DNA from: Cyanodermella asteris
Taxonomy: Eukaryota; Ascomycota; Lecanoromycetes; Ostropales; Stictidaceae
Assembly (NCBI GenBank): GCA_900618795.1
Contig: UYJD01000003.1
Span: 1,785,336-1,849,335 of the forward strand
Length of the DNA: 64,000 nt
Direction of reading: 5' to 3'
Position 1 is the first letter of the stretch. Each line of letters starts with the position of its first letter. Positions 17,495 through 52,228 of the stretch are shown piece after piece. The notes below the pieces were generated by a model. It was not told the DNA's origin. It ran no database searches and was given only the letters and a program-made list of their open reading frames with translations. A program made the translations under genes and the position numbers.

Positions 17495-18302
17495 CTATCT
17501 CAGGAAAGGCCATGAAAGCCTCCGTGTCAATTCCGGCTGGTACCAGGATCTCTGCAGGAGGAACTGGCGGATGACGGACTCACGGACAACAGCCTCCCAG
17601 GTAAGGCCCGCTTGGTATTCCCCGACCGGCAGGGAATCCAACGATCGGTCGATCGCCACGCCAGCATTGAACTGGTCCCACGACAAGGCGACGTTGGCCT
17701 GCCGGTCCGCGACCCTCTTCTTCAGCTTCACCCGCTTCTCGACTCGGGCCGCTTTCTCCGCCTGGATTGCAGCAACAGACACCCCCGCACGAGCTGCCTT
17801 GTCCTGGATGATTTGTGCCTGCGAAAGGCGGATGTACGCCCTTGACGGGCCGAACGCAAAGGTTGACAACGTTGGATGGGCTTTCCAGGCGTCTCCGACC
17901 ACCCGTACGTCGTTGGCATGCCTGCGCCGCGCGTGTCGCCGGACGCCGTCGCGTCGACAGAAGGAAGCGTTGCAATCAGCGCATGGGCATCGAAAGATGT
18001 CGGCGCCAATGCCCTGTTGCTTTATCTGGTTGATGTCGCAGACTGTTGTTAAAAGATCAGCGTTGAGCCTTCGTTCACCGGAATTAGCTGGAAGACTTAC
18101 TGCGGACATCATCGTCCAAAATTCCGTCCTCACCAACCACCTTGTACTTGATGTTGATTCCTGCGAGACCACCCTTGACCTTTGCAGCACCTTTGATGTA
18201 CTTCAGGTTTCCAGCTGACATCAAATGGATCTTTGTGTCCACGTATTTGCCATTGCTGTCGGACTCCTTCGCACGGATTGTGGTAGCAACTCCACGCGGC
18301 AT
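17495..18302 (-). CDS. GIG-finger family protein A (single C2H2 finger)
   Basis: Exons are 18302-18101 and 18042-17495 around a 58-nt phase-1 intron (GTAAGT donor, TTTTAACAACAG end), giving 249 aa. Residues 19-26 (KYVDTKIH) and the beta-rich stretch INIKYKVV match copies B and C. The intron splits the Ile68 codon. Then come CDINQIKQQGIGADIFRC and a C2H2 finger with Cys86, Cys91, His104 and His109 (C-X4-C-X12-H-X4-H). A post-finger motif (AHPTLSTFAFGPSRAY) matches B. The C-terminal half is a basic/Ala-rich helix region. The N-terminal NLS exon seen in B and C is absent. Probably nuclear; one C2H2 finger could bind DNA, RNA or protein. I do not recognise a named family. Confidence 0.62.
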
Positions 18303-19506
18303 TATTGCGGTTTCAGTTCCTGATAAAGAGACTTTGGCTGATTGAGCTTGAGGGAAGTCGAAACTGCGTGCAGCCCGATAACAAATCAATTCGAGAAAGG
18401 TGGCCTTGAGTTGTTGGTGTGATGTGCAGGAGTGAGCTCGACTCAAATCTCGTGGATCGAAACCGAATTGCAACCTGAAGTCTGCAAACTAGGAAAGATG
18501 AACCGGATGCCAATCCAGAAGATCAAATGGAAGCCTATCGAGGTCGATGCAAGGCAAGTATTGAGCTTGATTGTGCGTTGGTGTTAGCCAATGTATCAAG
18601 GTACTCAGACTGATGCAGTGTGTGTATGGACAAGTTGAGCTTCCAGGTCGGTGCGAAAGAAGTACACTGCTTCGCTTGGGATCTACGGGGAAGCAAAAAG
18701 CCCTACTCCGCTACTCAGTCACCACAGCGAGATAAGCGCGCACCGTCCCTCAATTCACAAACTCGAGCACGGTTCACCTCTCTTCACACGAGCGGGCCGG
18801 CCTCATGCCCTCCGCCGCAAGGTACCCTACCACGCGCGATGGCATGAGACGCTCACCGCAGAAGCAGCAATGCATGCTGAAGAACCCCCTTAATGGGACG
18901 ACGCTTCAGCCGTGCCGTTCAATTGGATCTTATGCCCTCATATATCTGAAATCGCCAATTGGCTCATATTTAGACGCGCACCGCTCTATTTACAGAACTC
19001 CGGGGGAGCACCCCATCCAACATGCTGGCAATTGCAAGATTCCCTGAAATCAAAACCAGGTGGGAGTTTCGCAGCCGGGGTTGTTACAATGGCACAATAT
19101 GCTGCCAATCACAGCCTGTTTGACTACAAGCACGAATGCTGCTAGCTTGCAGCAGCTTGATGGCTATACTTGCTGTCAAATATTGTTGGCTACAACGAAG
19201 CACGCCACCTGATCATTGTACATGCTTCCGAACCACCTGGCTACGTCGCTTTGATACTGGCTGGAAAAGAACGAAACATCTTTGATTTTGGTTGCCTCAT
19301 TTTGGGCTAGCTATTTAATTCTGCTACACGCCAGCCAGGGCGAAGCGTCGCTCACATCGAGCTCTCAACTTTTGAGGTAAATGAGAAAATATCCAAAACG
19401 CTGACAACGAGAGCCCCCAAAATCTTCCTCGGAAACTTACAACCGCCGCACGTCAGACGGAATGTTCCATCCCAAGAGCAGCGCTGAAACGATCTCAGAC
19501 GAACAA
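18303..19506. other. Intergenic region
   Basis: No supported gene. It should include the promoter of copy A. No NLS exon like those of copies B and C was found upstream of copy A. The stretch is AT-richer near 18950-19400. Confidence 0.45.
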
Positions 19507-19558
19507 GTCTGGACGACGAGTCTGGACGACGAGTCTGGACGACGAGTCTGGACGAACA
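19507..19558. repeat. 13-bp tandem repeat, four units
   Basis: The unit GTCTGGACGACGA occurs three times in perfect tandem, followed by a fourth unit that diverges at its end. It lies just beyond the inverted duplication at the 3' end of copy B. Confidence 0.9.
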
Positions 19559-19573
19559 ACCACCCGGTCTTCG

Positions 19574-19817
19574 GCCATCCGAGCCACACAGGTCTCAACT
19601 TCAACGACCACCGACAAAGATTGTCAGGAGAAGAAAGTGCCGACGAAGAAGCCCCTTCAGGTCTTCTTCTTCTGTGGCAGCAGCTTACCGCCATTGGCTT
19701 CCTTCTCCTTGGCGATCACCTCCTTGGACCGACGCTTGTAATTTCGCGAAGGTCCATAGGAGTAGAACGACATTGTCGGATGGTCGTTGAAGTTGAGGCC
19801 TGTGTGGCCCGGGTGGC
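19574..19817. repeat. Inverted duplication of the post-finger exon segment of copy B
   Basis: The left arm 19574-19617 and the reverse complement of the right arm 19773-19817 agree at 41 of 44 aligned bases, with one single-base gap. The right arm is part of the coding sequence of copy B (residues HTGLNFNDHP, just after the finger). The left arm is a non-coding copy in opposite orientation beyond the stop codon. The two arms are 155 bases apart, and the end of the copy B coding region lies between them. A transcript of copy B with a long 3' UTR could fold on itself here. Confidence 0.85.
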
Positions 19818-20762
19818 TATTTTGGAAGTGCCGGTCCACTGTGCTGCGCCGGACGAAGGCGCCATCACACTCCAGTACAGGGCACCGGAACACGTCTGCC
19901 CCGATGCCCTGCATGTTGATCTCGTCGATCCAGCAGGTGTGAAGCTGCTGGTCGACGGTTCCATCATTCTCCTTGATGTTGTAGGAGATTTTGATGTGGG
20001 AGTGCTTGGCGCCCTCATTCTCGTCGTCGTCTTCCGCCAAGGGCTTGATGTTGCCCAGCCGCCGGCGTTCCACGACGTGCACCTTTGTATCGGTGTAATT
20101 GCCGGCGGCGTCCCTGGTCTTTGGGCGCGTTTGGATGTGGGCCGCCCGGCCCACCTTCTGTTTCTTGGGCTGCTCTGTCTCGATATTAGCTTTGAGCTGC
20201 GCTTTTATTGGGGAACAAACATACCGGCGGCAACCTCTTCCTCAGCCTTTCTTTTCGTCCCCGCCACGGAACCGGCAACGAAAGTGCTTGGGCTGGCCGG
20301 GGCTGGACCGAAAGTGGCAGCGGGAGGCGGACTGGCAGTGGTGGCGGGAGTGAAGGTGGGAGTGAAGGAGGCAGTGGTGATGTTGTGGTGGTAGTAGGTG
20401 GGTGTTGAGGAGGCTGACTCCTCGGCGGCGATCTCCTCGGAGAATCTTGCAAACAGCGCATCAAGGCGCTCGTCGTCGTCGTGGGCGGGCGGGCTGGACG
20501 GTGCCGGCTCCACCTCTCCAGCGAAGATCCCCGTCGGGATCAAATATGTTTCGGGCCTGGGTCCAAAGATTGCGTCGCCGGGCAGCTGCATGGCGGGTGC
20601 TGGCTGCGGCTGGTACCAATGGATTGGTACGCCCAGCTGGGCGTGCTCGACCCATTGGACGGGCTGCTCGACCTCCAAAGCATACAGATCCATGGGATCC
20701 CACTGCAGCTTGGACATGCCAGCGTCGGCGTTGTAAGTGTGCATGGTGGATGTGGAGTTCAT
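19657..20762 (-). CDS. GIG-finger family protein B (NLS plus single C2H2 finger)
   Basis: Exons are 20762-20225 and 20174-19657 around a 50-nt phase-1 intron (GTATGT donor, GACAG acceptor), giving 351 aa. Residues 1-165 are Pro/Ala/Thr-rich and acidic (DDDERLDALFARFSEE), like an activation domain. An NLS-type KRKAEEE sits at the first exon end. The second exon opens with KKQKVGRAAHIQTRPK, then DAAGNYTDTKVHVVE (about 201-215), the strand region IKISYNIK, and INMQGIGADVFRC. The finger is Cys277, Cys282, His295, His300. NDHPTMSFYSYGPSRNY follows. The intron found before the GIG motif in copies A, C, D and E is absent here, so it was probably lost. Intact frame; likely nuclear. Its 3' end is involved in an inverted duplication. 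Confidence 0.65.
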
Positions 20763-22005
20763 GTTGGGATGAGGCGAACTGAGGCAAGGTGTTCAACTGA
20801 CGTGAGAGATGAGTGGCTAATTGAAGCTTGATGCGACAATTGGCAATGAAGATTCTTGGAAGTATGAAGATTGAGTGTTTGAAGAGCTTTGGTGAGAGTT
20901 TGTTCTGCTTTCAGTTGTGTTGATGAAGAGTTGGAGGGCTTCAAGGACGGGAGTTCAGAAGAAAAGTGAGGACATCAGCACAGCTTCCCGCGCCGCGCGG
21001 TCCAAATTTTCTGCTGCCGTGGACACTGACTCACTCGACGCGAGAGGCTGGGCCTTTGTTTGAGCATGAGTACTGCTGCCTTCACTATTTTGCTCTGCCA
21101 GCCGGGGCATGACGCCGTTTCTATTGACAGATGTTACGAAACCGCGAGACCTCGAGAAATGCGGCCCATCACTGGCCCCCTGTCGGCTGTCCTCATTTAT
21201 AAATGTAGGGAGAGGGCCTAATGCATTTGATCACTCCCTACCAGGCATGCTCAGGGTACCCTTTCGAAGACTCGATTCTGGAAAAGGGGTATTACGGTTC
21301 ACAGCAACCTTCGTTCGAGCATACACGAGATGATTGACCGCAATTTACACAATCAGAACGTTGAATTTGGAGTTACGAAATGATTGAGACGCCTATCGAC
21401 TGAATTCTATCGAGCCAATGCAATTGGGCTTTGAATACTACCAAAAGTGCAGCTATCGAGATATCTCAGCTGCTGCACTCTTATGACGCGGAGCATTCCG
21501 AGAGCTCACCATCAGTCAAAGGTACTGGATGCTGGCTCTCAGATAAAATGCTACGCTGCGGCAAAACCAACTGTTCAGACGTCAAGTCCTCAAATTTTGG
21601 GCGACATGGAACGAGGGCAGCATCGTCTGAAGTCGAGCTCGTCCAATCGGCGACATGAAGTTATCGGCAGCGATACAGGCTGCTGCGCCGTAGCAAGTAG
21701 GTTATTTTTCGTCTTGCTGATTGCCCTGACCACTGTTCGATATTCACGCCTCGATTCTTTGCGAGCTCACTCCTCGTTCTGCACCCCGGTCCTCAGTCAC
21801 AGAAGCTTCATCTTTCTCCATTTGAGCCCCACGTCTGATTGTTCCAATAGCTTGCGTTCACCACGATCTGACCTGTCTCCGGCATAGTAACACAAAGCCG
21901 GTGCCCGGCCCACCCAGGCCCACCTCTTGTGGATCATTGCCATGAATATCGGAATCTGAACTCGCCGGATCAGGGCGAGGAAGGTATCAATACATGCAGA
22001 GGCCG
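20763..22005. other. Intergenic region
   Basis: No supported gene. The start of this stretch should be the promoter of copy B. The remainder has only short overlapping frames. Confidence 0.45.
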
Positions 22006-23382
22006 CTACTGCTGCGGTGTAGCGGGAACATTGCCAGCCGTCTGGTTACTTGCTCTGAGTTTGGTTTTATTTTGCCGCCTTTTTCCTTTGCGGCCTCGCT
22101 TCTCCTTCTCCACCAGCTCCAGCTCTGGGTCGAGGTCTTCAGGAGCCTCAGACTTGACCTTGCGTTTTGGGTAGTTCGGGTTTTTTGCGCCGTAGCCGTC
22201 AAAGAAACGACAGGTTGGATGATCTGTCCAACCCAGTCCCTCAGCCTCGGGCGTACCAGCATGTATGCTCAGGAAGTGACGTTCCACCGTGTGCCGGCGA
22301 ACCAGCGCGACATTACAGCTTGGAACAGGACATCGAAAGATGTCTGACCCAATTCCCTACATCTTGACTTGGTTGATGTCACAGACTGTCCTCGAGTTAG
22401 CCTCCGCGGTTTCTGAATGCTCACACGACGTTTGACTTACAATGCAGGTCTGCGCCAACGACACCAGCGTCATTCTTGATCAGGTAGCTGATTGACACCG
22501 GTGAAGATGTGACGTATCTCAGTGGAAGAATGTTCTCCAGATTCTTTGCCTTGACAATATGAATCTTGGTGTCCTGGTAGCCCCCAGCGGCGTCATGTTC
22601 TTTTGGCCGGATGTGTCTGGCATCTGTACCCCTTTTCCGTCTCTTTGGCGACGCTCGAAGAATTGTGGGTTCTTCAAGGGTTGTTAGTACTTGAAGTGAT
22701 GCTCAGGGAATTAGGACAGAAGGACATACCAGTATCAAGCTCATCATCGGCCTTGCGTTTGATGCTGGCGGCATTTTGGCCCTTTGCTTCGAATACGTCG
22801 AAGCTCGCCTCTGGTAGCTCCAGGTCTTCCGTTGAGGGGCTTGGCACCGAATCGCGCTGCCTCCAAAAACCTCCGGCTTCGTCCCAACCCGGCGTCAGTC
22901 ATGGCAGGAAATTATCGTTCCAGGCATTGACATCGAGATCGACCGAAGGCACAACCGGATCCAAATCGTGGTGTGGGGCTTGTCCGAACATCACCGGATT
23001 GGGCGATAAATCATTCCCCAGCTCACCATCCCCCGCCATGACGATTTGGTACTCATAACCCAATGGCAATGAGTGACTACGGGGTGGAGCTTGTGGAAGC
23101 AGATCATTCGTGTGCAATGCTGTCGCAGTGTTAAACGCTGACCGGCGTGCGTTGTTGTTATTATCAGTTGGTTGCCCTGATGAAGCAGGCCAGAATTCAA
23201 ACTTTCCATGATCATCAGCAGTTGTCCTTGCAATGCTTCGGAAAGATGCTTACTGGTGCGTCCAAAAGCTCTCCAATGTCATCACCCCACCGGGGTTCTG
23301 CGTCGAAGCCGATGCCGCTCGATATTTCCGCCAGGATTCTATCCACCTCAACACTCATAATAGGGGAGCCGTTGTACGTCAT
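22006..23382 (-). pseudogene. GIG-finger family copy C, interrupted by two stop codons
   Basis: Four exons can be read: 23382-23254, 23201-22730, 22671-22441 and 22385-22006. The introns have good ends and branch sites (for example TACTAACAACC), and together the exons keep one frame of 404 codons. Two in-frame stops occur: TGA at 22901-22899 and TAG at 22359-22357. The TAG falls just before the GIG motif, at the position where copy A has CAG and copy B has CAG. The parts are an acidic N-terminus, SIKRKADDE, KRRKRGTDARHIRPK, DAAGGYQDTKIHIV, VSISYLIK, GIGSDIFRC with a C-X4-C-X12-H-X4-H finger, and GWTDHPTCRFF. The C-terminus is Lys/Arg-rich. Both stops fit single C-to-T changes on the coding strand. 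It may still be transcribed. Confidence 0.65.
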
Positions 23383-24881
23383 GCTTGTGTTTCGACGTAT
23401 GCTCCGAAAAGGTAAAGAATCGTTGAGACAACTGTGAAGAAATGCAATGAGGATTGAAGGTGGTTCACAGAGTTTCAGGGGAATTCGTGCGATTGCAGAA
23501 TTCTCGAATTACCGATGGCGCAGGAAAATATTTTGCACAGCTAACGACGTTGTGAATTATTCAGTCTGTCTCAATTGAATTCACGTCACGGTTTGCACGC
23601 GATCCTGAGTCAGTGATTGGCGAGGCCACCTTCTGTGAAGACACATCCGCTCATGCCCGCGGTCTTCACCAATGCTCGCGCGGCCAAGGCAGCGGAACAC
23701 ATCGCCGACCACATTGGAGAGCACTGCAGTCAGTTCGAGGGCTGCCCTCTTTTTGATGAGGCAGGCAACGTGCCGGAGGTCGTTCGAAGCCGGAGATCAG
23801 AACATTCAAAAGGCAATTGGCGTGGACGAGCGAGCTCGTCGCCAGACTGGGAGGCTTGCTGAAGTCGACTTAGTTGAGGCTAGAGTAGCCGCACTCTGGG
23901 TCAACGATGCGGCAGCCAAGGGCTACGATGATAAAAGGGCGCCGGCAAAGGCGTGGCCGAAGACGATGTACTGAGCTCATAATTATACGTAGACTAATCC
24001 TTCTCAACGTATGCCGCAAGAACACACCACGCAAGCAATGCCGGAGATCTCTGGACAAGAGGCTGCGAAACGAACAGACAGCTGAGCCAAAGTAGACCAG
24101 TGCTCCCTTATAAGTGCTTGGGAGCCGCTTTCGTTGTCTGGCGTATCGACCAACACGTTGACGGCAGCTTGTCATCCAACATGGCGTGCCAGCTCAGGCC
24201 ATCGTTATAGATGTAGGCACAGATTGCGCAATCACGCTATGCATAAAGCGGCGATGATGCCTAATAAGTGCCATCAACCAAGCTTAGATGCTCAATGGGA
24301 GCCCCTTTTGAGCTCGCGGTGACTAATGCAAGCACCAACTCGACGTCTTTGTGCCGCAGCCATGAACTGGGCCATATCTGATTGCGTCCACGCGTGCTTG
24401 CTTCTCGCAAGTCTTTTGGCCGCGAGTGCTGCAAGACTTGGGCAACAATATTAAGGTGATGGGCATCTCCTCTTCCACATCAGTAATCATGTCAATTGCA
24501 TTGCGGCACTTGCCACGTTTCACTGCTAAAGCTTGCGCAGCACCAACAAATGGCAAAGTCATTGATAAAAGTGCTGTGAACTGGCATAATTGAATTCAAT
24601 TCACCGCTGGTAAGTGACGACAGCTCAGCAAAAGGTGGAAGCCCATGTAAACAAAGCCACTATTCCTCAATATTTTTATGAGAAACTATTCGGATGTTGA
24701 GTTTTTAGACTCGTTGCCGCACCACATCGGATCATCCATTCCATCCCATCAGCATCCTCCACCGAAACTCCTTGGAGCGTGATCGTCAACACATTGCCAC
24801 AGTATTTCATAACACAACCTCGAATCGTCGGTCAATAATATCAAGACGGAAGTCAGAGTCACCGAGATTAATGATCAACTA
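23383..24881. other. Intergenic region with a possible gene relict
   Basis: Apart from the relict listed at 23653-23974, I see no gene. The stretch separates copy C from a plus-strand orphan and is AT-richer between 24250 and 24880. Confidence 0.4.
23653..23974 (+). pseudogene. Possible relict of a small unknown gene
   Basis: Two adjoining frames carry coherent, charged protein-like sequence: first AKAAEHIADHIGEHC and FEGCPLFDEAGNVPEVV, then, after a frame change near 23785, GDQNIQKAIGVDERARRQ and LVEARVAALWVNDAAAKGY up to the stop at 23974. The second half has helix-forming composition. A one-base shift or an unseen short intron could explain the change. I do not recognise the protein and coding status is doubtful. 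Confidence 0.28.
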
Positions 24882-25427
24882 ATGGGCAACGCCGTACTGC
24901 CAGTCCCCGAGAAGCGGACCAAGAAGAGGTCTCTGGAAGCAGCATTTGGTAAAGACACGCCCGGGACAGCAGCCGAGAAAACTGAGCAAGGACCACACCG
25001 GAGTGGTCGTCCCCGCAAGTCACGGCTTTCTGACCAGAGCCCAAGTGAAGACATTCCCAAACCTGTCTTCAAGCCATCGCCAGACTACATCCGTCTGATG
25101 TCTGCGATCCGGCTCCATAACAACACCGTCTCCAGCTTCGAGGAGCCGGAGGAAGGTCCCTGGATCGGTATGGAGGTCTACCTGCCAGACTCAAAAGAGA
25201 ATTCAAAGAAGAAAACACCAAGAAACAAAGAGCCCAACTTCTGGGAGAGGATGGTCAGACAATGGGGTTACGAGGAGCCTCCAGAACTCAAGGCAGAGGA
25301 TGACTGTGAAGTGCCTGCGACAGAGCCAGGCATGTCAAGAGGGGGACAACTCTTGGCTGAGGCAACCATGTCCAACTTTTCGGCACAAACAAGAGCAGCA
25401 ATCGCGATCGTGAGGAGGAAGAGGTGA
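24882..25427 (+). CDS. Orphan protein with AT-hook-like motif
   Basis: The frame from the ATG at 24882 gives 181 aa. It is hydrophilic, with an AT-hook-like core HRSGRPRKSRLSD near residues 39-51 and basic clusters at the N-terminus (EKRTKKRS). A segment SPDYIRLMSAIRLHNN and a Trp-rich piece (NFWERMVRQWGYEEPPE) follow. The true 3' end is uncertain. A neighbouring frame from about 25388 continues with acidic, protein-like sequence (NRDREEEEVKDPEALLPFG, ending at 25501). An intron near 25310-25390 could join the two, but no strong donor is visible. I do not recognise the family; an AT-hook suggests minor-groove DNA binding. Confidence 0.45.
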   Translation: MGNAVLPVPEKRTKKRSLEAAFGKDTPGTAAEKTEQGPHRSGRPRKSRLSDQSPSEDIPKPVFKPSPDYIRLMSAIRLHNNTVSSFEEPEEGPWIGMEVYLPDSKENSKKKTPRNKEPNFWERMVRQWGYEEPPELKAEDDCEVPATEPGMSRGGQLLAEATMSNFSAQTRAAIAIVRRKR

Positions 25428-25830
25428 AGGATCCTGAAGCGTTGCTACCTTTCGGCAAGATCCCGCAAGAAGCGACCCATGCTGAGCTGGTCGTTGTATA
25501 AATTAGAAGCACAATTGGAACAGCGCGCCGACAGGTGTACAAGTGGATCGCCAGTGATCTTGGTGTCTAAATTATCAAACAAAATGGTCGCTCTTTTGCG
25601 CGGTGACTCTTTGACTCCGTCTAACATACATGCAAAGAAAACTAAACAGAATCAAACTTGAAGTTGTCGTCGAGTAGAGAACACACGACCGTAAGACTCG
25701 CCATTTGTGCCTTTAGTCTGTAACGCGAATATGCTCCCATCATCATGATGGTGTAACGCGGGCACGGGTTGGTTGACTATGTAGGCGACCAATGAAGGTC
25801 GGCGTCAAGTCTGAAGGTGTTGCTTGTAGG

Positions 25831-26149
25831 NNNNNNNNNNNNNNNNNNNNNNNNNNNNNNNNNNNNNNNNNNNNNNNNNNNNNNNNNNNNNNNNNNNNNN
25901 NNNNNNNNNNNNNNNNNNNNNNNNNNNNNNNNNNNNNNNNNNNNNNNNNNNNNNNNNNNNNNNNNNNNNNNNNNNNNNNNNNNNNNNNNNNNNNNNNNNN
26001 NNNNNNNNNNNNNNNNNNNNNNNNNNNNNNNNNNNNNNNNNNNNNNNNNNNNNNNNNNNNNNNNNNNNNNNNNNNNNNNNNNNNNNNNNNNNNNNNNNNN
26101 NNNNNNNNNNNNNNNNNNNNNNNNNNNNNNNNNNNNNNNNNNNNNNNNN
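25831..26149. other. Assembly gap (319 N)
   Basis: An unbroken run of N marks unsequenced or scaffolded DNA inside a gene-free stretch, so anything it holds is unknown. Confidence 0.99.
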
Positions 26150-26818
26150 CCCTGACGTCTGATCGGTCTTTCCTTTGTCCGTGACAGATGGCTGCTCTAG
26201 TCATTTGCTTCTTTGTTACGCGAACCGTAAAATTCATAGCAAACGCACAACGGGGAAACGCTCATTTTGCGAAGCTGCACACTTCGGTGCATCGATCATA
26301 TGGAGCGCAAGCATGCCGCCTGTATAGCAAAGCACTGGTTCGATGCTGAAGGTCAGATTGATGTTGGGCTGACCAATCCGAAGTTGCCAGAATCACATGA
26401 CCAGGACCAAAGCTCTCGTATACAGGAACCAAGAGGCACGTTTATGCTTCTATAATACAGCATGCACCCCGACGAGGGCACGCAAAGGCTCACATGTACT
26501 TGATCTTTATTGACTGATATTATTGTTTTGGCTTCATTCTGCCCATGCGCATGCTGCCTGCGGTATCGAGCCATGCCAATAACCGACCTCTCTGCCAGCA
26601 CGATGTGAACATTTTAGAATCTCGACCTATGCCAAAACGGCCCAACACACGTTTCCAACCAGGCCCGTTGCTATTACCAATCCGGTAATGTTCAATGCAG
26701 GTTCACAATCATGGCCAATCATCTCCACCTTTACCAACTATCCAGACGCAAGTGCATCTACCAACAACACTGAACGGCACCAGAACGCACTGGAACCCAT
26801 CGTGAATACCCACCTCAA
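26150..26818. other. Intergenic region after the gap
   Basis: No supported gene. Together with 25502-25830 it forms the spacer between the plus-strand orphan and copy D and should hold the 3' UTR of copy D. Confidence 0.4.
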
Positions 26819-28450
26819 TCACTGCAATTGAAACGGTCTTTGATCAGCTCCAAACAAGAAGTTATCAAGCTCCTTCAGCTCCTTTTCACTGAATAAGTCA
26901 TCGATATCGGACAACTGCGACATGTCTTCTGCTGTGAAAGCGATTGAGGCGTCTTGTGCCTCAAAGATGTGAGTCTGCTGCATCTGCTCGTGGTGCTCGT
27001 GCGGCCCATTATGCTGATACTGCCCATCATATTGGGACTGATTGTTCTGAGGAATCTGCTCATCGTGCTCGAAATGTGAATTGTGCTGACATTGTTGGTG
27101 CAGATGCATTTTTCCGTTTTGCTGGTACTGCCTGTCATGCCAAGACTGTTTGCTCTGCTGCTGCTCATTCTGCTCGAGAAATCTGCGTTTCTGGTACTGC
27201 TCGAGCAGATACAGTTGTTCATTTTGCTGGTACAGATTGATCATCTCAATATCCGGTCCATCGTTTTGAAGATCCCGGACAGGGCTCGGATATGCGTGGA
27301 ACGACAGGTTGGCCGGCTCTTGGAGCTCCAACTGGCTTCGTACCACGAGCGCTGGCTGCTGCCTTGGATATTTAGCCCGTGCCATGTGGACATGACGACT
27401 AGACGCACCAAGCAAGCCATCGGGCTCACTAGATCGCCCCAGCGGGTAACGCCTCCCCATGTCGAGGTTGCTGGAGATCTGAGTGAGCCTTGCGAACTCG
27501 TTTTGGAAAGTCGGCGGGTTTTGCACGCGTGTGTCCTGTCTGTCGATCTCGTTCAACCCGATAGGGTTGACGAAAACACCGTCGCAACCCACATCAGCAC
27601 ATTCACGGTTCTGATGACCATGAAATTGGTTCGAAGCATACGTGGGGGCCTCGTGGGCGAACCAAGTCTGCAAGGGGGTTGATTCCCTTATTGGAAGGCG
27701 CAAGAATGGTTGTGTCCTTGCGGCAAAGAGAAGGCCGGGATCGATCGCTGACGACGCAGTGTCATCCAGCCAGTCTTGGGCCTGTGGTCGAGGAGGCTGG
27801 AGAACCTGCCGCGGGAGGAAACCGCCAAATTGGTGTGGATTGTAAATCGCCCTTTTCATGGATCTGGCCGCCTCGGTCTCGGTTGAGCGATGAGACTTCG
27901 ACGCTTCAGGAAGAGATTCAGGTTGCTTGTGGGAAGGAAGAACTGAGCCAACCACTCCCTTTCGTGGATGGAAGCGGTCGCGTCTGGCTGCTATGGCTGC
28001 ATAGATGGCTTCACGAACCTCGCGTGGTCTATTATCATGTCCAACACAAGTGACATCGTCGTGCCACCTTGCTCCGGGGTGCGGTTTCTTATTCTCGTGC
28101 ATCCGGTGCCAGTGGGCTTCGATCGTTCGTGGAGCGGTTCCCTCGTACGAACAGTATCCACACCTGAACACGCGTTGTCCGATGCCTCTCGAGTTGATCC
28201 GACCGATATCGATATCTCCATTGGTCAGCGTTGTGGCACACAGAGGGGAGCACTACTCACCATGGTACTTCACAGGATCGCTGTCTATGACCTTGAGTCG
28301 AATCATGAACCCAGTCTTTCGTGCCCATCGACTAGTTTCTGGCTTGACACCTAGTTCAAAGTCGTCCCAGGTCACAGAGTACTGAGGGATGTCATGTATT
28401 GTGCCCTCTGCTTTCGCAGTATGCCCACGATCTCGCTCCGATGTCGACAT
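26819..28450 (-). CDS. GIG-finger family protein D (finger plus Q/H-rich acidic tail)
   Basis: Exons are 28450-28261 and 28215-26819 around a 45-nt phase-1 intron (GTGAGT donor, CGCTGACCAAT branch, GAG acceptor), giving 528 aa. The N-terminal exon ends with the strand region FMIRLKVIDSDPVKYH. Then INSRGIGQRVFRC leads into a finger with Cys82, Cys85, His98 and His103 (C-X2-C-X12-H-X4-H), followed by GARWHDDVTC. Residues after about 180 are low in structure. A Gln/His/Asn-rich tract (about 390-490) ends in an acidic, aromatic tail (LSDIDDLFSEKELKELDNF) that looks like an activation domain. This layout suggests a transcription factor. The intron position and phase equal those of copies A, C and E. 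No named homologue is recognised. Confidence 0.62.
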
Positions 28451-29214
28451 TTTGTACGAAGAAGTTGCAAGGTCTCAGAAGAGATAGGTGTTGTTCTGAT
28501 TTCAGAGCAGGCCGGATGTGTTCCTTGGGAAGTAACAGACTGCTCCGAAGAGCAGAGGTCGAGTGCGCCTTTGAGAGGGGAGAAAGCCTGGCCAACCCAG
28601 TGTAAGGCAAGGTGCGCTTGACATTCACCAGGTCGGTTGTTCTTATGCCTTCACTTATGTGAACGTGTCGGGCTCCCGGTCAGCAAAAGCCAAGCTACAT
28701 ATCGCTTCATCTACCCGCTCAAGGCGAATCGCGCCCAAGCCGATTCGGCCAAAGGCTTTGCTGGCAGCATTGCTGCCCTTGCAGCTATTGATCGCTTGCA
28801 TGGCCTGCCCCCGTCATCGGTCAATTTGATGAAAAACGATAACATATGGGGCTGTTTATAGATCAGGCTCATGTAAGATACAGGCCTGTGAAGCGAACAC
28901 GCTCCTCGTATGCGCAAATTGAGGAAAACCGAGGCTACTCATTACAGATCATGAGGCCGTCGGCGATGCATCGGCGCCAGCACAACCTCCGAGCGTCAGG
29001 TCCAGATGCCCGAACACGGCGTCCTGCAGACATTTCTACATGTGGCTTACTCCCAAGCGCGTCATCCACAGTCATCACGAAGCAAACATGTCTGGACATG
29101 GAAGAAGCACTTTTCATGTCTATCTTTACTTGTTTCGGCACAAACTCCTTCGGCTTTCGCTCAACATTCTTTGTTCGGGCCACCTGGCCGCCAACGCCTC
29201 GAAACAGCACACCA
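28451..29214. other. Intergenic region
   Basis: No supported gene. It should include the promoter of copy D. A short minus-strand frame (28935-29210) has no start context or family features. Confidence 0.4.
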
Positions 29215-29802
29215 TCACTTTGTGGGTTGATCCGCTTTGAATTTGTCTTCCCTCTTGTACTTGGTGTGTTCGCTGATATCGTATTGCGGCGGCGGCGGCG
29301 GCACCAAGCCTTGAACGAATGCGGGATCTGCGAGTTTGGCAGCTATTGCCTCCTCTTGCTCAGATTCTGTCATGCGGTCCAGATTGGGAAGAACCGATGG
29401 ACTTCTGGACTGCTCCCTCGTTGTTGTGCTGCCGGTTCCAGCTGGATTTGGTGTGGGCGACTTGTTGACTGCAGTACGGATTTCTCGAAGCAATCTGATG
29501 TGTTCATCTGCTGTTCCCGTCACCTTGATCACCCCGCTTCCAGGTTCCGTCTCTTCAGCACCTGCCATTTCCGCTCCCGTGAAATATCGAGCACGCTTGA
29601 CCGTTCCTGACGAGTTATAAGAAAAGTCAGATTCAAGGCCATCTGCAGCCTCTGCGTCGGAATCTCGAGGCTGCTGTCCAGGGTCTTCGGTATTTGTGAC
29701 GCGATTTGGAGCATCAGGTGAGTCCTCAAGGCGCGTGTTCGACGTACTCGACTTAAAGAGGCTACGTCTGGTGCGATCGGCGGCTTTGTTGTTCTTATTC
29801 AT
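29215..29802 (-). CDS. Orphan hydrophilic protein (195 aa)
   Basis: The first true ATG is at 29802 (MNKNNKAADRTRRS). The protein is Ser/Glu/Asp-rich with no membrane span or Cys. It contains TADEHIRLLREIRTAV (about residues 106-121), a helix ESEQEEAIAAKLADPAFV, a short Pro run (from a GGC microsatellite at about 29288-29302) and a charged end. The IRLL/IR segment faintly resembles YIRLMSAIR in the orphan at 24882-25427. It is probably disordered. No family is recognised; coding support is the long frame and biased composition. Confidence 0.45.
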   Translation of the reverse strand: MNKNNKAADRTRRSLFKSSTSNTRLEDSPDAPNRVTNTEDPGQQPRDSDAEAADGLESDFSYNSSGTVKRARYFTGAEMAGAEETEPGSGVIKVTGTADEHIRLLREIRTAVNKSPTPNPAGTGSTTTREQSRSPSVLPNLDRMTESEQEEAIAAKLADPAFVQGLVPPPPPQYDISEHTKYKREDKFKADQPTK

Positions 29803-30698
29803 GCCTGGCAACTGTCTGTAGACAAGGCCGGAAAGGGATGGACGCGATGCTCTTACGGATGCTAACTTCGGCTGCGATATGACCGCTGCACAAGAGCCAA
29901 AACGGCCAGGAACAGGAACTTTGGCGACGTATTTATGGCAATGTCCGCAAGTTTGAAGGCGATTGCTTCACTGTTCAACGCTTGCTTTGTGCCAGTGGTA
30001 TTCCCGCAATAGCTCACGCTGAACAGCACTCTACGGAGTTTGACGGAAATTGCTGTACACGATTTCGTCGAGCATGACTTGGACTATTCCTTTCTAAGTA
30101 ACCCTGCAGTTTGGAGAACATGGAATGGCAAGACTACAAGCACAGCTGCTTGCTCAAGCAGTGTTCCAAATTTGTCGGCAAGTTTGGAAATAGACGTTGG
30201 TGAGGTTACATACATAGCAACTTGCGCACGAGTTGGATGTCCGATGACCTGGCGCTTCATTGGTCTCGAAGATCCGAGCATGCGGCGGTGTCTGCGCATT
30301 TGCGTATTCGATGAAAGGCTTTACGTACGCCCTATTGACTTATCCTGCAAGCTGTCGCAGCAAGTACATTCACGGATACAGGACTCAACAACGCTGAGCT
30401 ATGCTCCTCTATAGGCAGACAGCCACTCAAGAAAGTTTGACAGTTTTGATGCGCCTGATAACTGTTCGTTGACGGATTCTCTCAAAGAATATGATAAGTT
30501 TACCTTGGACCGGCTTCATAACCTTCAAAAGGCGAAGCCAAATTCAAAATCATGCATTCCTCAAGTCATCAAATCATGGGAACTTGCTCTCAGATCCATG
30601 TAGTAACATTTACCCTCCCTTCCCAGCCAATGCTAGAAATCTATCGCCTGGGCAAACAAAAACCCGCAGCCTGACCTAAACCAACACCGGGGTCACTT
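29803..30698. other. Intergenic region
   Basis: No supported gene. Frames are short, and the stretch is AT-richer than the genes around it. Confidence 0.4.
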
Positions 30699-31088
30699 TC
30701 ATTGAATCCCAACGCGAACGCTCTCCACGTAGGTGTCGGCTTGAGCTGAACTTACTGATAAAGCCGGTGCGCAACTCCTGCGCCGCAAAGTCTCGATACC
30801 AATGCCCTCAACGTGGATCTGGTAGACGTTGTGCTATTGTGAATTATTTGGCGATTGAATACCAGGTGAGTACCGACGATGAAATATCGCTTGTGGAATG
30901 ATCAGGAGGCATCAGTTTGCCTGAAGGCGCTCTCTAGTACCGCCCTATCACCGGAATAAGCTCGGAGTGCGCCTTTGTTGTCACGTCGTGGATCTCAATG
31001 CTCCACTGACCTGTGAGAATGGCCCAAATGTCCTTGGTGCCAATGTGCTCCCTTGTCGTCAACACAATCGTTGCGATTCGCGCTTTTA
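30699..31088 (-). pseudogene. Possible diverged GIG-finger relict F
   Basis: Minus-strand reading gives WSIEIHDVTTKAHSE, comparable to the strand regions of the other copies, ending near a GTGATA donor at 30951. A candidate acceptor (AATAG) at 30834 is followed by HNVYQIHVEGIGIETLRRR, which aligns with CDINQIKQQGIGADIFRC of copy A. The first finger Cys is replaced and no His pair follows before the stop at 30699. No ATG is seen upstream. It may be a remnant of a sixth copy; similarity is short and uncertain. Confidence 0.32.
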
Positions 31089-32671
31089 TGCAGCCCTACG
31101 TTCGAGCTCAGCTGGATCGGTTGTGCAGGGTGATTCGCCTTTCCAGCAGCAGTCGCTACCGCCAGCTCATGGGACGCTGCAAGACGTGTGCGGAAACGCC
31201 AAGTGTCCACCAGCATTCATTCATGTCTTGAACGTAGCATTGTCCTTGGCATGGTCCTTCTAGCGTCCCAATGCTCTGTAAGAGCGAGCACTTGACCAAG
31301 AGATCGTACGCCGAGCACATTGAGAGCAACCACGCTATCTAGCACCGTGCGGCTGATCGTATCGTTCCGTGCAACTCTCTGCTGCGATGCTTCCCGTAGC
31401 ATTCGCATGTGTTCTGCGAGGCTCATACCGCGGAGGACGGACTCCCTGAACGATGCGCTGGCTGAACACTGAGAGCAGTAGTGATGCTCTCCATCATCTT
31501 ACTATAAGTCCGCAATACTGAGCTTCATTTTGGCCTGGCACATTGAAAATTCTGACTCTGAGGTGTGTTTACTGCTGATACAGGATCTGTTGGAGCGATG
31601 GCGGCGTGGGCCTGTTCTCATAAATACGTATCTCACGAGAGCGTCTTGTTCCCGCAATGGAACACCATTCTACCCATGAACGAACGCCATGATTGGTACT
31701 AAACCTGACATGGGTGATTCGAGGATCTGAGCAGCGTCAAGCGAGACTCAATCACCTGAGTCAATTTCAAAGGAAGAAAAACTTGGACTTTCACGGATTG
31801 TGGCAAGAGAGATCACAAAATTGGATGAAGCATATCAGGCACACGCAGTGGTATCGAGTCTCAGTGCAAAGCGAAAAAGGAAAACGACTGCTGCCAATGC
31901 TGCTACTTTGTGATGGCCATTGCGTGGAAATGAACTGTTCACTGGGATTGATGAGCCACACAAATGTAATTGCAGGGAGGAGTTAAACAATTACGAGGAA
32001 TCGAGCCTTCAACCGAGATGGCGGACCATGGTTTTACAGAGTATTCATGCCCTTTCCCACCCAAAATGTGAATCTTTGCCGGTTGCTCTGAGATATCGCG
32101 TGTCAGAAATCGAGCTGCTGCTCAATCTCGAAGTCCGGTCCAGGATTCGAAGAGGTGTGGAGCGAAATTGTTGGCAAGCTATGAGGAAAGGCAGGCCGAT
32201 ATAGTGTACCGAGCTGTGAGATGGCTGAATCAGTGTTGTGACATTGCCAACTCGTCCGCGAAGTAACAGGCATGGGACGTTGGAATTACAGGGTATCGCT
32301 ACGGAATTTGGAAACGTGTTTGAATTTCGTGTGGCTTTGAGCCGTTCTAGACTGACATGATATGTTTGGTATACGTTGAGTCGTTGTAGCTTGATGGCAT
32401 GACGTGCTGATTGATTGTTATACGTGAGAAGAGGAGCTCCTACATCGACACTTAAATTGCTTTCGTTTTCGTTTCTTTTCTTTTGTTTGGTGGTCTGAGG
32501 AAGCGGGGTCTGTTTTCTTCTGGCGAGGCTGTCTTTGAATTTTGGTGTGAATACTTTTCGATGCTCAGAAAAGAGACGCGCAAAGGAGCGCGACATGAAG
32601 TCATGGCGGCGAGGCTGGAGGAAGGGCTACCCTGTCTGACCTAGATTTTGTAGAATGTCGTACTACCAAGA
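31089..32671. other. Intergenic region
   Basis: No supported gene. A 183-aa minus-strand frame ending at 32045 and a 69-aa frame at 31217-31426 lack clear features and were not called. Confidence 0.4.
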
Positions 32672-34825
32672 TTAGAAGTCCCAACGATCATTGTGGTCAC
32701 GGGGAAAGTGGCTATCGTAGAAGCCTTGCCAGTCAAGTGACATGTTGGCGTCGATAGTAGGTAAGTCAAAGTCATTGTTGAGAGCGGCATTGCCGACAAC
32801 AGAGGGACCGTCGGTGGCGAGGTTTAGATGGCGAGGCGAGTTACTGCTAGTCGCCGTTGCTTGTTCGACTCTCGGATCGACCTCGAAAGGAGCGTCGAAA
32901 TTTGCTGGAATGTCGAAATCGAACGGGAGATCCTGCGAGTCCTCGCCGTGTTCAATATCCAAAAGGTCAAGTCGCGAGTCCTTGAGAGCCTCATCCAGCT
33001 GATCCTCGAAACTCTTCGGTTTCTTGGAGACCGTACCATCTTCGCCATCTTCGTCTGGGCGAGCCTTCCGTTTACCCAGGCGCGCCTCTGGGATATTGAA
33101 CTCTGGAGTGAAAGTGGGAATCGCTGAAGTTGAAGGTTCTATCGGGTTTGAAGGCGAGAATGTCGTTTGTGCGGCTTGCAGTGGAGATGGTGGTGCTTGT
33201 GCTGACGTGGACTGTTGATAGAGGGGCGCATCGAACATTGGCAAAATAGTTGCATCGACTGCGTCTTCTTCCTGGTCGACCCGTTCGGCGAAATCCTGAG
33301 TCGTAGAACTGTCGGGATTGTCGAGCTCGTCGAAGACCGAAGCCTCATCGACGGTCTGCACTGTCTCGAAAGAGCTGATGCTCTCGCGAAAGTCGTCCTT
33401 AGCAAAGAGAAATGCTCCCATTTGAGGTGGGATATAGTTCAAGGGGCGTGGCGAGAGCCAACCACCAAGCCTGATCGTCCACCACTGGTGGTCTTTATCC
33501 TGAACTTCACAAATGCCTTTGCAGGCTCTCTCCAAAACACCGCTCTGGTACAAGAATGCACACTTTGCAAGGACCTCGCTCATCAGCTGGTTTTCAGAGA
33601 TGACATTGCCCATCGGTAGAACGCGGCCAGCTGTGTTGTAGCGCACGAGTCCGTGCTGCGAAGCTTCATCAAATATCCGCATAGATTCCGCAGGCTCTAT
33701 AAACTGGATCGCCTGGAACCTTTTCCGAGGATCGAGCAAGTCGTTCATCTGGTGGTAGCGTTCATGGTCTCCAAAATTTGGGCCATTGAACACGTAATGC
33801 GCCATCTCGTCAGGTCTCGCCCCATGCATAGACACAAATCGCGGCCTTTTGGCGGCCGGAAGGTTGCGTCGCCAGAACTCATGGTGTCGAAGCCACGCTT
33901 CAGGTCGGAAACTTGCCGAGTAGCGTTGGGTGATTGGGCCTGAAGAGGAAGAGAATCAGGGCTTGTAGGGGAGCTTGCAGTGGGACCAGCATTGAGAACA
34001 GGAGGAGCCACAACAATCGAAGCAGCAACGTAACCGGAAGTAGAGCCAAACCCAGCGGGTGCATGATGGGCCTGGGCGGGAGCCCGGACAGCGGGGAGAG
34101 AAGTACTGGGCGCTGCAGCTTGAGTCACAACTCCTGAGGCTGCAACTTGCGCAGCTGCGGGATTCTCTTGAAGGCGTGTTGTCTCTGTCCCTCTGTAGGT
34201 ACTCTCAAAGCCCTGACGAGGATAGTCCCAAAGACTGTCTACGTGCAGATGCGTGTGACCATCCGCATCCTCGCAATACATGCTGGCATGATTGCACTTG
34301 CCGTTCGATCTGTTGGCACAGTGCTGCTGTTTGAAATGTCGGCACAACGTGAAACTTCTCGTGTACCGATTTGAGCAGTCCCGGCATTTAAAAATCCTGA
34401 TGCCGAGACCCTTACTAGGTATCCGGTTGCTGTCGATCACTGGGGATACTGTTAGAACTTGTGCTCTCGAAATGATAATAAGACGAGTGCTTACAATGAG
34501 AGCTTGCTTGTCCCTTGACACGTAAACGCACCATTCGGCTGGATGGCACTCTTGACCCTGCGCCGGTGATTGGAAGCAGATCCGACCGTGCTGCGGCAGA
34601 AACCTCCCAAATATGGCTCGAATCAAGTGAAACGTGCACATGATCTGTGCAGTCCTGTCGACAGTGCGTTCCAATGTCACTTCTACAATCATCACAGTTT
34701 GTGCGATTGTGTACCCCCCGGTTGGTACTCGATGGGGGAACTGCAAGTGGTGTTGTTGACGTTGCAATTGGGCCATTTCCGGTGGTGGCCGAAATTGCAT
34801 TTAAAGTTATCGCGTGAGAACTCAT
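32672..34825 (-). CDS. GIG-finger family protein E (finger plus long novel C-terminus)
   Basis: The proposed exons are 34825-34495, 34439-34035 and 33939-32672, giving 667 aa. The first intron (55 nt, GTAAGC donor, TTCTAACAG branch region, CCCCAG acceptor) is phase 1 at the family position. The strand region RMVRLRVKG precedes it. After it come IDSNRIPSKGLGIRIFKC and a finger with Cys129, Cys132, His145 and His150. The second intron (95 nt) has a strong pyrimidine-CAG end but a weak GTTACG donor, so it is less certain. The third exon encodes a globular-looking part (AWLRHHEFWRRNLPAAKRPR, MGNVISENQLMSEVLAKCAF), then an acidic disordered tail with KRKARPDED. Alternatively the locus has a one-base shift or holds two genes. 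No known domain is seen beyond the finger. Confidence 0.55.
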
Positions 34826-42387: not shown

Positions 42388-45024
42388 CTACCACTCTGGC
42401 TCCATAGCATCCGTGCTATCCGGCCCATTGGCAGCAGCAGGTTCACTGAGGAAGGAGGGCGCACCGTTGGGAACTTCAGTAGCTCCGTCGGTTGTCTGCT
42501 CGTCGTCAGAGCCAAGACTCTCCCATTGACTACCCCAGTCGAACTCGGTATCCATAACATCCTCACTAACCGGCCCACTGACAGCAACAGGTTCACTGAG
42601 TAAGGAGGCCGCGGCATCGGTATCTGCGTATTCTTCGCCAGATGTCTGCTCGTCGTCAGAGCTACTGTTCTGCGAGTCACTGTCCCAGTTGGACTCCAAG
42701 CTAACTTCACTTTCCGGTTCCTTGTTCCATAAATCGACATCAAGGCTCTCTACAAGCCTCAACTCCAGGAGTTCATTCTCATTTTCTTCCTTGAGGATGG
42801 GTACCATCCAATCTGCCGGAAGAAGGCGTGGACCTACCTCGCCGTTTGCACCCTTGCCAATTCGAATGAAGACAACGTTAGCTTCGATTTCGCATCTCCG
42901 GTTTTGGGTATTGAACCTCGTTGGCTGGTCGTAACTTGCTGGTCAGAAAATGAGCGGCAATGGATTCGGAGCTTTGGGGTGGACCTTCCTTACGGGAAAG
43001 GCCTGGATCAGTGGAGCCACTGCTGGAAATGCCATCAAAGCCGACATGACATCAAAATTGGGATCCACCCTACACTGGCGGATCAGCTGATGCCAACGCC
43101 CGGGCTCAATAACTTCATTTGGTGTCGTCTCACAATCGGGACCGAGGTCAAAGTTGTAATACGGAATCGAGTTCTCTGACATGATTGCTTCAAAATCGTC
43201 CAGCCTTGCCACAAATTCTGACACGCATACGTAAAAGTTTCTGATGAGCTCTCCGGTGTAGCGTGACCCCTGTCCACCGCGTATCCAGGCCTCCAGCTCG
43301 AACAGACCTTCGATTTCTCCGCTTATTCGTCCTATCAGGCTGGAAGTGTGACCCACGGACGTGCAGCATCCATGACACAGTTCCCTCGCTCTCTTGCTGG
43401 AATTATGCAGCATTTGCACGGTTGCCTCAACAGATTGGAAGCGTTCACCGAGTCTCGGACACCACACGACTGTGGTATACGAGGGCGTTAGCTGTCCGAG
43501 ACGTCTGCGCTGTCTGGAACTGATAGTGTTGCGCGCCAGACGCATGTCGACCTTGCAGCGATTGATTGCATGCCGTTGCTGTGCCACCTTCGCTCGACAA
43601 TCGACCAAATATCCGAGGCTGGCTGGAGATGTTTTGGGATCGATGTTGTCAATGTAAGCGCGGGATGTTGCCATCAAACGACGCATTTTTTGGGCAATTT
43701 CCAATCCGCCCTTGGCATAACGCAAGCCATCAGCCAGGTTTTGATGAAGTACGGTCAGGTCACCGTTCGTGATCTCTTGGTGTTCTTTTGCAAAGGACGA
43801 CATCGGATATAGCCCGTCCAGTATGTCTTGGTTGATGTAGAACATTTCCGAATCTAACTGCCGCAAGTTGCTCGCCTGGCTTTCAAGTACGGCATCTTTG
43901 GAAGGGCCGCTCCATCGTCCCAAGGACAAAGCCTCCTCCACAAGAGATGCGTTGTGGAGTTGTTGGTCGAAAGCCGACAAGTCGATCATCCCAATAATGG
44001 CTTTCACCCTGCGGCGCTGCCTTGCGAGATCATCTATGAGCGGAAGCGGTGGATCTGGGCCCCGGTTGGCGCGGAATGATGTGTCCAGTGCGGATATTTC
44101 TGTGTCGGCACAAATTGTAAGGAAGAGAGGAACTGGCGGCGAGTCGTCATCATCCATCCTGAGACCCGGGTCGGTACGGCTGTAGGCTGGAACAGGCCCA
44201 TAACAAAATGGACAATCGGTACGTGACTTGCACACGCAGCTCTTGACGTGAAGCTTTCGTGGAACCACATGGATGCTTCGAATAGCCAATGCCAGTGACT
44301 GCTTGAGCGTATCCTTTTGTAGGTCCAAGTGCTTTGAGGTTTGAAGCACGCTGATCAGATTGTCCAAATCCAGATCATCACCATAGGAGACTCCCAAAGG
44401 CCGGATCTCGATTCTTCTAACGACTGTATCAGGACCCCAACAGAAGCCGCCAGCGTCAGGGTTCTTGACAGTGCTTTGAATCCATGCGGTCAACTCATAG
44501 ATAACGCCTTTGAACATGTGGGAACTAGGCAGCCCGGGCACCCTGAATTTGCATGATGCTTCAAGCACCGCGTTTTTTGCGGCTTGTTCCTCGCTATGAA
44601 ATAGAAATGGAACCGTGATGTCGCAGCTGTCCCGGACCATTGGAAAGATACCGCCCCGGTCGAAATTTAGTCTCAGGGAAAGTACAGCGTCGTGATTATG
44701 CTCAATTTTTTCGAAACCTTCTTCGGGGTCCAGATCATGTGCGAGCTCCCTAATATAGCGGACTGTGTAGGGATTTGGGCTCCCAGACGGACCGCCCCAT
44801 TGCGTCAGCTTCCCTTTGAACGATTTGTCACGTACAAGACCATCTATCAGATCTCTGAAAGGGACGCGCCAAAGCTGTAGCGCACGACCGCCAGGGCAGG
44901 GCAGTCTCTCCTCGGGCACCTCCTGCATGAACGTCTTTGGTGCACGATATCTGCTGTTCCGGAATTCTTGACCATAATACATGTTTGACAGGACGGAGTG
45001 TCGTTTGATTATTTGACCTTCCAT
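42388..45024 (-). CDS. Large orphan protein (855 aa) with acidic repeat tail
   Basis: Exons are 45024-42994 and 42924-42388. The 69-nt intron (GTAAGG donor, TTCTGACC branch, GACCAG acceptor, phase 0) is a multiple of three and contains the in-frame TGA that would otherwise end the protein after 693 aa. The N-terminal 250 residues look globular (LPCPGGRALQLWRVPFRDL, LSLRLNFDRGGIFPMVRD). A Cys cluster CVCKSRTDCPFCYG lies near residue 275. The middle is helical, with many charged heptad-like stretches, and a second Cys group (CHGCC) follows. The C-terminal exon is acidic and carries two related repeats, each with SDDEQT and a SEPxAxxGPxS element. I recognise no family. Confidence 0.6.
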
Positions 45025-45636
45025 AGCTGAGCTTGCTTACCGACCGGCGGTGGTAAATATGACTGTGACTTCGGGCTTTTGTTGAACGTTGGTGTCTTAT
45101 TGAAGCGATGTGTATAACAAGGTGTGTGCGTATGCAGCGTAGAAGCGATGCACAAGATGTGGTAACGAGTGATGGTGCCGTGTCTTATGCTTTGAGAGGC
45201 GAAGTCATGCTTTGATAGGCGAAGACACTGTTCGTGTTGTTATGAATAGCCATGTCAAGCATTCAGTCCAGTCTCGAGTTCGCCTGTCGGTCCTTCTGTC
45301 GAGCTCGCAGTGTGCAGGTCCAATGGCATTGTATATGCCTCGACTCTCTGCGATTATGCGTATTGTTAGCTGTAGGAGCAAATAGCTCTAATTCATCACA
45401 GCTCAGCTGGTAGAGGCCAGTGATGGAGAACAAAGCCATACTTCGAGAACAAATGCCGAACAACCAGCATTGACGTGACAAAGCCGCCACATAGCTCCAT
45501 CACGGTGCAAACGTGAACAAAGGGAAACACAACACTTCATCGCACAGACCTCGATGCCATCAATATGTCCCTTGGTAGTGGACAGTGATTCTCGGAACTC
45601 AATTTCCCAATTTCAGAACAGAACGAAGGTATTAGC
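45025..45636. other. Intergenic region, divergent promoter
   Basis: It separates divergent starts of two orphans and shows no gene. A short imperfect direct repeat (ATGCTTTGAKAGGCGAAG, twice) lies near 45187-45225. A D-arm-like piece near 45405 is not part of a tRNA. Confidence 0.4.
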
Positions 45637-52203: not shown

Positions 52204-52228
52204 NNNNNNNNNNNNNNNNNNNNNNNNN
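52204..52228. other. Short assembly gap (25 N)
   Basis: A run of 25 N lies in the upstream region of the small Q-rich gene, so its promoter or a 5' exon may be incomplete. Confidence 0.99.

What the first reader, a model, noticed from the sequence alone, without database searches (positions are those of the whole stretch)
17495..34825. Same-strand array of five paralogous single-finger proteins (GIG-finger family)
Copies A (17495-18302), B (19657-20762), C (22006-23382), D (26819-28450) and E (32672-34825) all lie on the minus strand. Each has a beta-rich segment, then I-N-x-(2-4)-G-(I/L)-G-x-x-(I/V)-F-(R/K)-C, then one finger C-X2/4-C-X12-H-X4-H. A, B and C also share a DTK(I/V)H element and an (A/D)HPT element, while sequence outside this core is unrelated between most copies. 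I know no named family with this pattern, so it may be an undescribed, locally expanded group of nuclear regulators or of genome-conflict proteins.
Basis: partly seen in the sequence, partly recalled or inferred. Interest (0 to 1): 0.82.

Follow-up and report, generated by a model that had tools for sequence, protein, structure and literature searches.

The report
Five related fungal zinc-finger genes
A stretch of fungal chromosome carries five old, distantly related copies of a small single-zinc-finger gene, probably for DNA-binding regulators, of which one looks dead; they fit no named family that could be searched, but the finger itself is of an ordinary type.

Summary
The motif G-[IL]-G-x2-[IV]-F-[RK]-C joined to C-x2/4-C-x12-H-x4-H occurs exactly five times in six frames of the window, all on the minus strand at the stated places, and never in 100 dinucleotide shuffles. 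Copy B lacks it.

Corrections: copy C has two in-frame stop codons, one inside the core, and is probably a pseudogene. Copy E needs an unproven second intron, or has a frameshift, to join its C-terminal frame. The upstream 'beta' segment is clearly shared by A, B and C only. The exact 'I-N-x(2-4)' spelling fits only B and D. Synonymous sites are near or at saturation, so this is an old array, not a recent burst.

No family model reaches threshold for the copies; the weak matches are mostly generic C2H2 fingers. The best reading is single-finger DNA-binding nuclear regulators with a lineage-specific N-terminal module. No fungal genome collection was on hand, so distribution and novelty are untested.

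The parts
17495..18302 (-). Copy A: two exons (18101-18302, 17495-18042), open frame of 249 residues; begins directly at the upstream segment; finger C-x4-C-x12-H-x4-H
   Evidence: (spliced frame open)
19657..20762 (-). Copy B: two exons (20225-20762, 19657-20174), open frame of 351 residues; the whole core lies in exon 2; lacks the core intron
22006..23382 (-). Copy C: four exons (23254-23382, 22730-23201, 22441-22671, 22006-22385), frame of 404 codons with the final stop, holding two earlier in-frame stops; probable pseudogene
22357..22359 (-). In-frame TAG of copy C, directly before G-I-G, where A and B have a sense codon
22899..22901 (-). In-frame TGA of copy C, in exon 2; no convincing intron covers it
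26819..28450 (-). Copy D: two exons (28261-28450, 26819-28215), open frame of 528 residues; finger C-x2-C-x12-H-x4-H; Gln-rich C-terminal part (seen in the sequence)
33748..34825 (-). Copy E, core frame: exon 1 34495-34825, exon 2 from 34439; finger C-x2-C-x12-H-x4-H; frame ends about 33748
32672..33955 (-). C-terminal frame of copy E, in another reading frame; joined by an unproven intron (best candidate 33940-34034) or separated by a frameshift
18043..18100 (-). Core intron of A (58 nt), 29 exonic nt before G-I-G
22386..22440 (-). Core intron of C (55 nt), 29 exonic nt before G-I-G
28216..28260 (-). Core intron of D (45 nt), 29 exonic nt before G-I-G
34440..34494 (-). Core intron of E (55 nt), 29 exonic nt before G-L-G
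20175..20224 (-). Intron of B (50 nt) upstream of the core, ten codons and one base after the start of KRKAEEE; C has one at the same distance after KRKADDE
   Evidence: distance counted by eye
22672..22729 (-). Intron of C (58 nt) matching the upstream intron of B

Best explanation
Five paralogous fungal genes for nuclear proteins with one classical C2H2-type finger set directly behind a family-specific segment of about 70 residues. The proposed mechanism is that the finger inserts its helix into DNA as a single module, helped by the upstream segment and, in A-D, by positively charged sequence after the finger. The dissimilar N- or C-terminal tails would then recruit partners or set regulatory output, so the copies share a DNA-contact module and differ in effector tail. 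Shown by computation: paralogy, finger spacing, open frames of A, B and D, stops of C. Modelled from consensus sites, not from RNA: the introns. Inferred: zinc and DNA binding, nuclear location, regulatory role. C is probably a decayed copy.
For: Five of five cores keep C2H2 spacing, and the first finger-core hydrophobic position is filled in four of five (G in D). By the usual numbering of the recognition helix (recalled, not from a call), positions -1 and 6 are both Arg in A, B, C and E, 4 of 5, with Ala at both in D; as I recall the recognition code, that suits a G-contacting finger. Net charge of up to 70 residues after the finger is +9, +7, +5, +5 in A, B, C, D, but -3 in E; no control set was scored. 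Basic, NLS-like stretches by a simple pattern lie in B, C and the C-terminal frame of E. The modelled intron 29 nt before the G-[IL]-G codons is shared by A, C, D, E. Left-out D and E score 28.7 and 22.6 bits against the A-B-C profile; the best of 2000 shuffles is 9.3 and 11.8. dN/dS is 0.25 (A-B) and 0.23 (A-C), the two pairs of ten where it is defined.
Against: No Pfam model reaches its curated cut-off for any copy, not even generic zf-C2H2 (A: 17.0 bits against 25.2). Unrelated C2H2 proteins in the PDB score up to 29.8 bits in all against the five-copy profile (18.3 for the better stretch of that hit), so the finger alone does not prove kinship of D and E. C2H2 fingers are also used for protein or RNA contacts (recalled). 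The NLS-like pattern is absent from A, D and the core frame of E, and present in 2 of 7 control proteins. The search for acidic, hydrophobic activation-like stretches did not separate these proteins from controls: shuffles of 500 that reach the observed score were A 88, B 104, C N-terminus 66, D 59, E core frame 6, E C-terminal frame 28, against 6 to 360 in the 7 controls. dS is close to saturation, so the dN/dS values are soft.
Confidence: 0.55

Rival explanations
1. The finger plus upstream segment is a protein-protein or RNA contact module, and the proteins are adaptors rather than DNA-binding factors.
For: Only one match to the finger pattern per protein; no DNA-binding family reaches threshold; the core model gives no significant fold match, though the model is poor.
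Against: Arg at both outer helix positions in 4 of 5 copies and positive charge after the finger in 4 of 5 fit DNA contact better.
Confidence: 0.25
2. Genome-conflict or selfish-element proteins, for example remnants of mobile-element genes that keep a DNA-targeting finger.
For: One broken copy, very divergent tails, a sub-threshold match of A to Transpos_assoc (E 0.24).
Against: No inverted repeats of 40 bases or more in 14-40 kb; no transposase family at threshold in the 30 sequences scanned, which cover 24 of the 83 ORFs of 140 codons or more besides the copies themselves; ordinary housekeeping genes on both sides. No 1-kb block of 64 shows a RIP signature (limits recalled), which is neutral.
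Confidence: 0.1
3. Copy C is not dead: its two stops are changed in the mRNA during fruiting by A-to-I editing, as in ascomycete genes with corrected premature stops.
For: Apart from the two stops the frame with three GT-AG introns is intact; such correction is described for filamentous ascomycetes (PMC7306014, passages seen).
Against: The passages of that review name Sordariomycetes and Pezizomycetes; the class of this fungus is unknown. Two stops in a diverged paralogue are more simply decay or sequence error.
Confidence: 0.07
4. D and E are not paralogues of A-C but independent C2H2 genes that share a finger by common type.
For: Upstream-segment similarity to A-C alone is weak or absent: 59 of 2000 (D) and 1156 of 2000 (E) shuffles reach it, and 6 of 7 pairwise tests are reached by 36 or more of 1000 shuffles; unrelated fingers score as high against the profile. 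The E intron is not forced by the frame.
Against: Exact core-intron position in A, C, D, E as modelled, the G-[IL]-G-x2-[IV]-F-[RK]-C lead-in in all five and in none of 100 shuffles, same strand and neighbourhood.
Confidence: 0.08

Closest known systems
Classical C2H2 zinc finger (Pfam PF00096, PF13894, PF13909)
   Same: C-x2/4-C-x12-H-x4-H spacing in five of five; sub-threshold matches to C2H2 models in A, B and D
   Different: One finger only by pattern, no curated cut-off reached, fixed G-[IL]-G lead-in instead of the usual linker between fingers (the usual linker is recalled)
Single-finger DNA binders of the Drosophila GAGA-factor kind (properties recalled; the structure 1yui appeared as an insignificant fold match, E 3.8)
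   Same: One finger; positive charge after it in four of five copies
   Different: No sequence match among those shown; DNA binding untested
Fungal dual-type factors such as C2H2 plus Zn-cluster or homeodomain (PMC5415576, passages seen)
   Same: A C2H2 finger joined to another part in one fungal protein; C2H2 is one of the families that grow with proteome size in fungi
   Different: The partner segment here gives no Zn-cluster or homeodomain match in Pfam

Membership tests
C2H2 zinc-finger proteins | C-x2-4-C-x12-H-x3-5-H spacing | tested here: met
   5 of 5 copies; the finger of C lies after an in-frame stop
C2H2 zinc-finger proteins | Score above the curated Pfam cut-off | tested here: not met
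   PF00096 17.0 bits against 25.2 for A; PF13909 20.7 against 27 for D; no zf-C2H2 match in the C pieces or E. I therefore call it C2H2-like by motif, not a Pfam member
C2H2 zinc-finger proteins | Binds zinc | not testable with these tools
   needs protein
Single-finger DNA binder (GAGA-like) | Exactly one finger with basic flanks | tested here: inconclusive
   One match to the finger pattern per protein in 5 of 5, but E has a further Cys/His cluster upstream; positive charge after the finger in 4 of 5, negative in E
Single-finger DNA binder (GAGA-like) | Sequence-specific DNA binding | not testable with these tools
   needs an assay
Transposon-encoded or domesticated transposase protein | Transposase domain or terminal repeats | tested here: not met
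   No such Pfam match at threshold among 30 sequences given (24 of 83 ORFs of 140 codons or more, plus the copies, D and E in part); no inverted repeat of 40 bases or more in 14-40 kb. Shorter terminal repeats were not sought
A paralogous family of its own | Shared intron position and profile similarity | tested here: met
   29 nt to G-[IL]-G in A, C, D, E as modelled; left-out profile scores. Upstream segment of D and E only marginal

The most novel reading that the evidence does not exclude
The upstream segment, the G-[IL]-G joint and the finger form one composite nucleic-acid-binding domain not yet described, carried by an old lineage-specific fungal family whose members swap effector tails and stay clustered.
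Probability: 0.2. Interest if true: 0.55.

Novelty: new variant of a known kind. Interest (0 to 1): 0.35.

Why it matters
If the composite domain is real it would add a fungal regulator family with a fixed, possibly DNA-binding module and freely changing tails, and an old tandem array in which to watch decay of single copies. If it is only a C2H2 gene group with fast-changing ends, it is ordinary fungal gene-family turnover.

Tried and rejected
Relatives elsewhere: B core and the five-copy alignment against IMG/VR viral contigs (5 and 2 stretches matched a pattern, none confirmed) and B core against prokaryote genomes (55 stretches matched, none confirmed). These collections are of viruses and prokaryotes, so the negatives say little about fungi. 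The whole-genome search was not possible.

Fold: two AlphaFold jobs on the B core with window-only exon fragments gave mean pLDDT 57.8 and 57.5, pTM 0.33 and 0.42. Fold searches with the second model gave no match with E at or below 0.001 in PDB or viral models (136 and 167 matches at E 10, the best 50 shown). I draw nothing from the top rows.

RIP as cause of the stops in C: not supported, no 1-kb block of 64 meets the usual index limits (limits recalled). Activation-domain test: did not separate these proteins from controls. A weak match between the N-terminal part of B and the C-terminal frame of E (blastp E 0.018) looks low-complexity and was left. Rfam and tRNA scans of the window: nothing (the tRNA scan used the bacterial code setting). 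My first model of C used a wrong acceptor for its first intron, mended.

Literature: seven searches of the open-access library for such a finger family and one for editing. No listed title or abstract start described a family of this kind; one search listed a paper on FfmA, a C2H2 factor of Aspergillus (PMC10542180), which I did not read. Passages of PMC7614390 gave only a reference to the GAGA structure. This is not proof that nothing is in print.

Full report
Setting. The window reads as fungal chromosome. Pfam matches on ORFs include a ribosomal L50 (39S) type, carboxylesterase, pirin, HD, thioesterase and Cupin_8 genes on one side of the array, and BAR-SH3, FMO, ribosomal L13e, Utp21 and kinase genes on the other (24 of the 83 ORFs of 140 codons or more listed were scanned besides the copies). 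The nearest solved Utp21 is the 1049-residue chain 5oql_O at 1272.5 bits, against 504.9 for the next. I recall this as a filamentous ascomycete protein; the table names no organism. The class of the fungus is not settled. No whole genome is held.

Is it there? Yes. In six frames the pattern G-[IL]-G-x2-[IV]-F-[RK]-C followed by C-x2/4-C-x12-H-x4-H is found five times, at the five places named, all on the minus strand. In 100 dinucleotide shuffles the joined pattern never appears and the bare finger spacing 29 times in all. A profile of A, B and C finds D at 28.7 and E at 22.6 bits, above the best of 2000 shuffles of each (9.3 and 11.8). This is not by itself proof of kinship, since unrelated C2H2 proteins in the PDB reach 29.8 bits against the five-copy profile.

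The intron settles it better. Splice sites were chosen by eye and the frames checked by script; the seven introns are 45-58 bases long. In A, C, D and E the last intron before the finger ends exactly 29 exonic bases before the first base of the G-[IL]-G codons, hence in one phase. B has no intron there. B and C share a second intron further upstream, at the same distance after KRKAEEE or KRKADDE. One shared position could be chance; four of four that have an intron, on top of the motif, is hard to explain except by descent. Two cautions: the sites are modelled, not read from RNA, and the E intron is not forced by the frame, since its second exon is open through it, so E rests on its consensus sites and the match in position.

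What is wrong or missing in the finding. With a 52-base first intron the frame of C runs 404 codons to the stated stop, that stop included. It holds a TGA at 22899-22901 and a TAG at 22357-22359. The best of 14 introns that could remove the TGA scores -0.3, against 5.7 to 11.6 for the seven introns of the models. C is therefore probably a pseudogene, or the assembly is wrong there. Yet the A-C comparison gives dN/dS of 0.23 over 134 codons, so decay would be recent. In E the core frame and the C-terminal frame differ; 15 joining introns are possible and the best scores 1.7. The upstream segment is plainly shared by A, B and C. For D and E it is marginal: 59 and 1156 of 2000 shuffles reach the score against A-C alone, 6 and 9 of 2000 when the other distant copy is in the profile, and of seven pairwise tests only D-A (3 of 1000) is clear, D-E is weak (36 of 1000), and the other five are no better than chance.

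Age. Of the ten pairs, eight have saturated synonymous sites and two have dS above 2.5. The copies are old neighbours, not a recent local burst.

Known families. Pfam at lax thresholds gives matches below cut-off only, mostly generic C2H2, and NCBIfam one match in 1 of 5 members, a transporter model at E 0.012. In the PDB sequence search with the five-copy profile, the best stretches of all 60 matches shown, of 160, lie within profile positions 74-120, the finger and its edges. Fold models are too poor to interpret.

How it probably works. The finger has Arg at helix positions -1 and 6 in A, B, C and E, and positive charge follows it in A-D. That suggests one DNA triplet contact with G at both ends, steadied by flanking charge, with the upstream segment as a partner module. 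This is inference from the helix numbering and recognition code as I recall them; no binding was tested. A test for activation-like tails did not stand out from controls, so the tail function is open. D, with Ala at both helix positions and Gly at the first finger-core position, may have lost or changed specificity.

Verdict. A real, old, small family in one array; the reading as regulators is plausible, conflict proteins unsupported. Whether the family is known elsewhere could not be tested with the collections on hand.

Noticed in passing
window 24813-25424 (+): ORF of 204 residues inside the array with no Pfam match at E 1 or better, with an AT-hook-like GRPRK stretch (likeness recalled).
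   Followed up: no
window 29218-29967 (-): ORF of 250 residues between copies D and E with no Pfam match at E 1 or better.
   Followed up: no
window 42946-45036 (-) and 45589-46683 (+): Large ORFs of 697 and 365 residues with no Pfam match at E 0.01.
   Followed up: no
window 25831-26149 and 52204-52228: Runs of N, the first inside the array, so a gene or piece could be missing there.
   Followed up: no
window 19506-19555: 13-base tandem repeat of 3.8 copies just downstream of copy B.
   Followed up: no
window 20118-20444 and 33011-33292 (-): B (N-terminal part) and E (C-terminal frame) both have a TFTP stretch followed by KRKA; weak blastp match, E 0.018.
   Followed up: partly
window 34628-34696 (-): Exon 1 of copy E holds a Cys/His cluster (C-x2-C, H-C-x3-C, H-x-H) that could be a second metal site; it is outside the finger pattern (sequence).
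   Followed up: no
window 27569-27601 (-): Copy D has a short stretch like the start of the B finger but without the His pair nearby, perhaps a decayed second finger; blastp E 3.6 over 11 residues, not significant.
   Followed up: no
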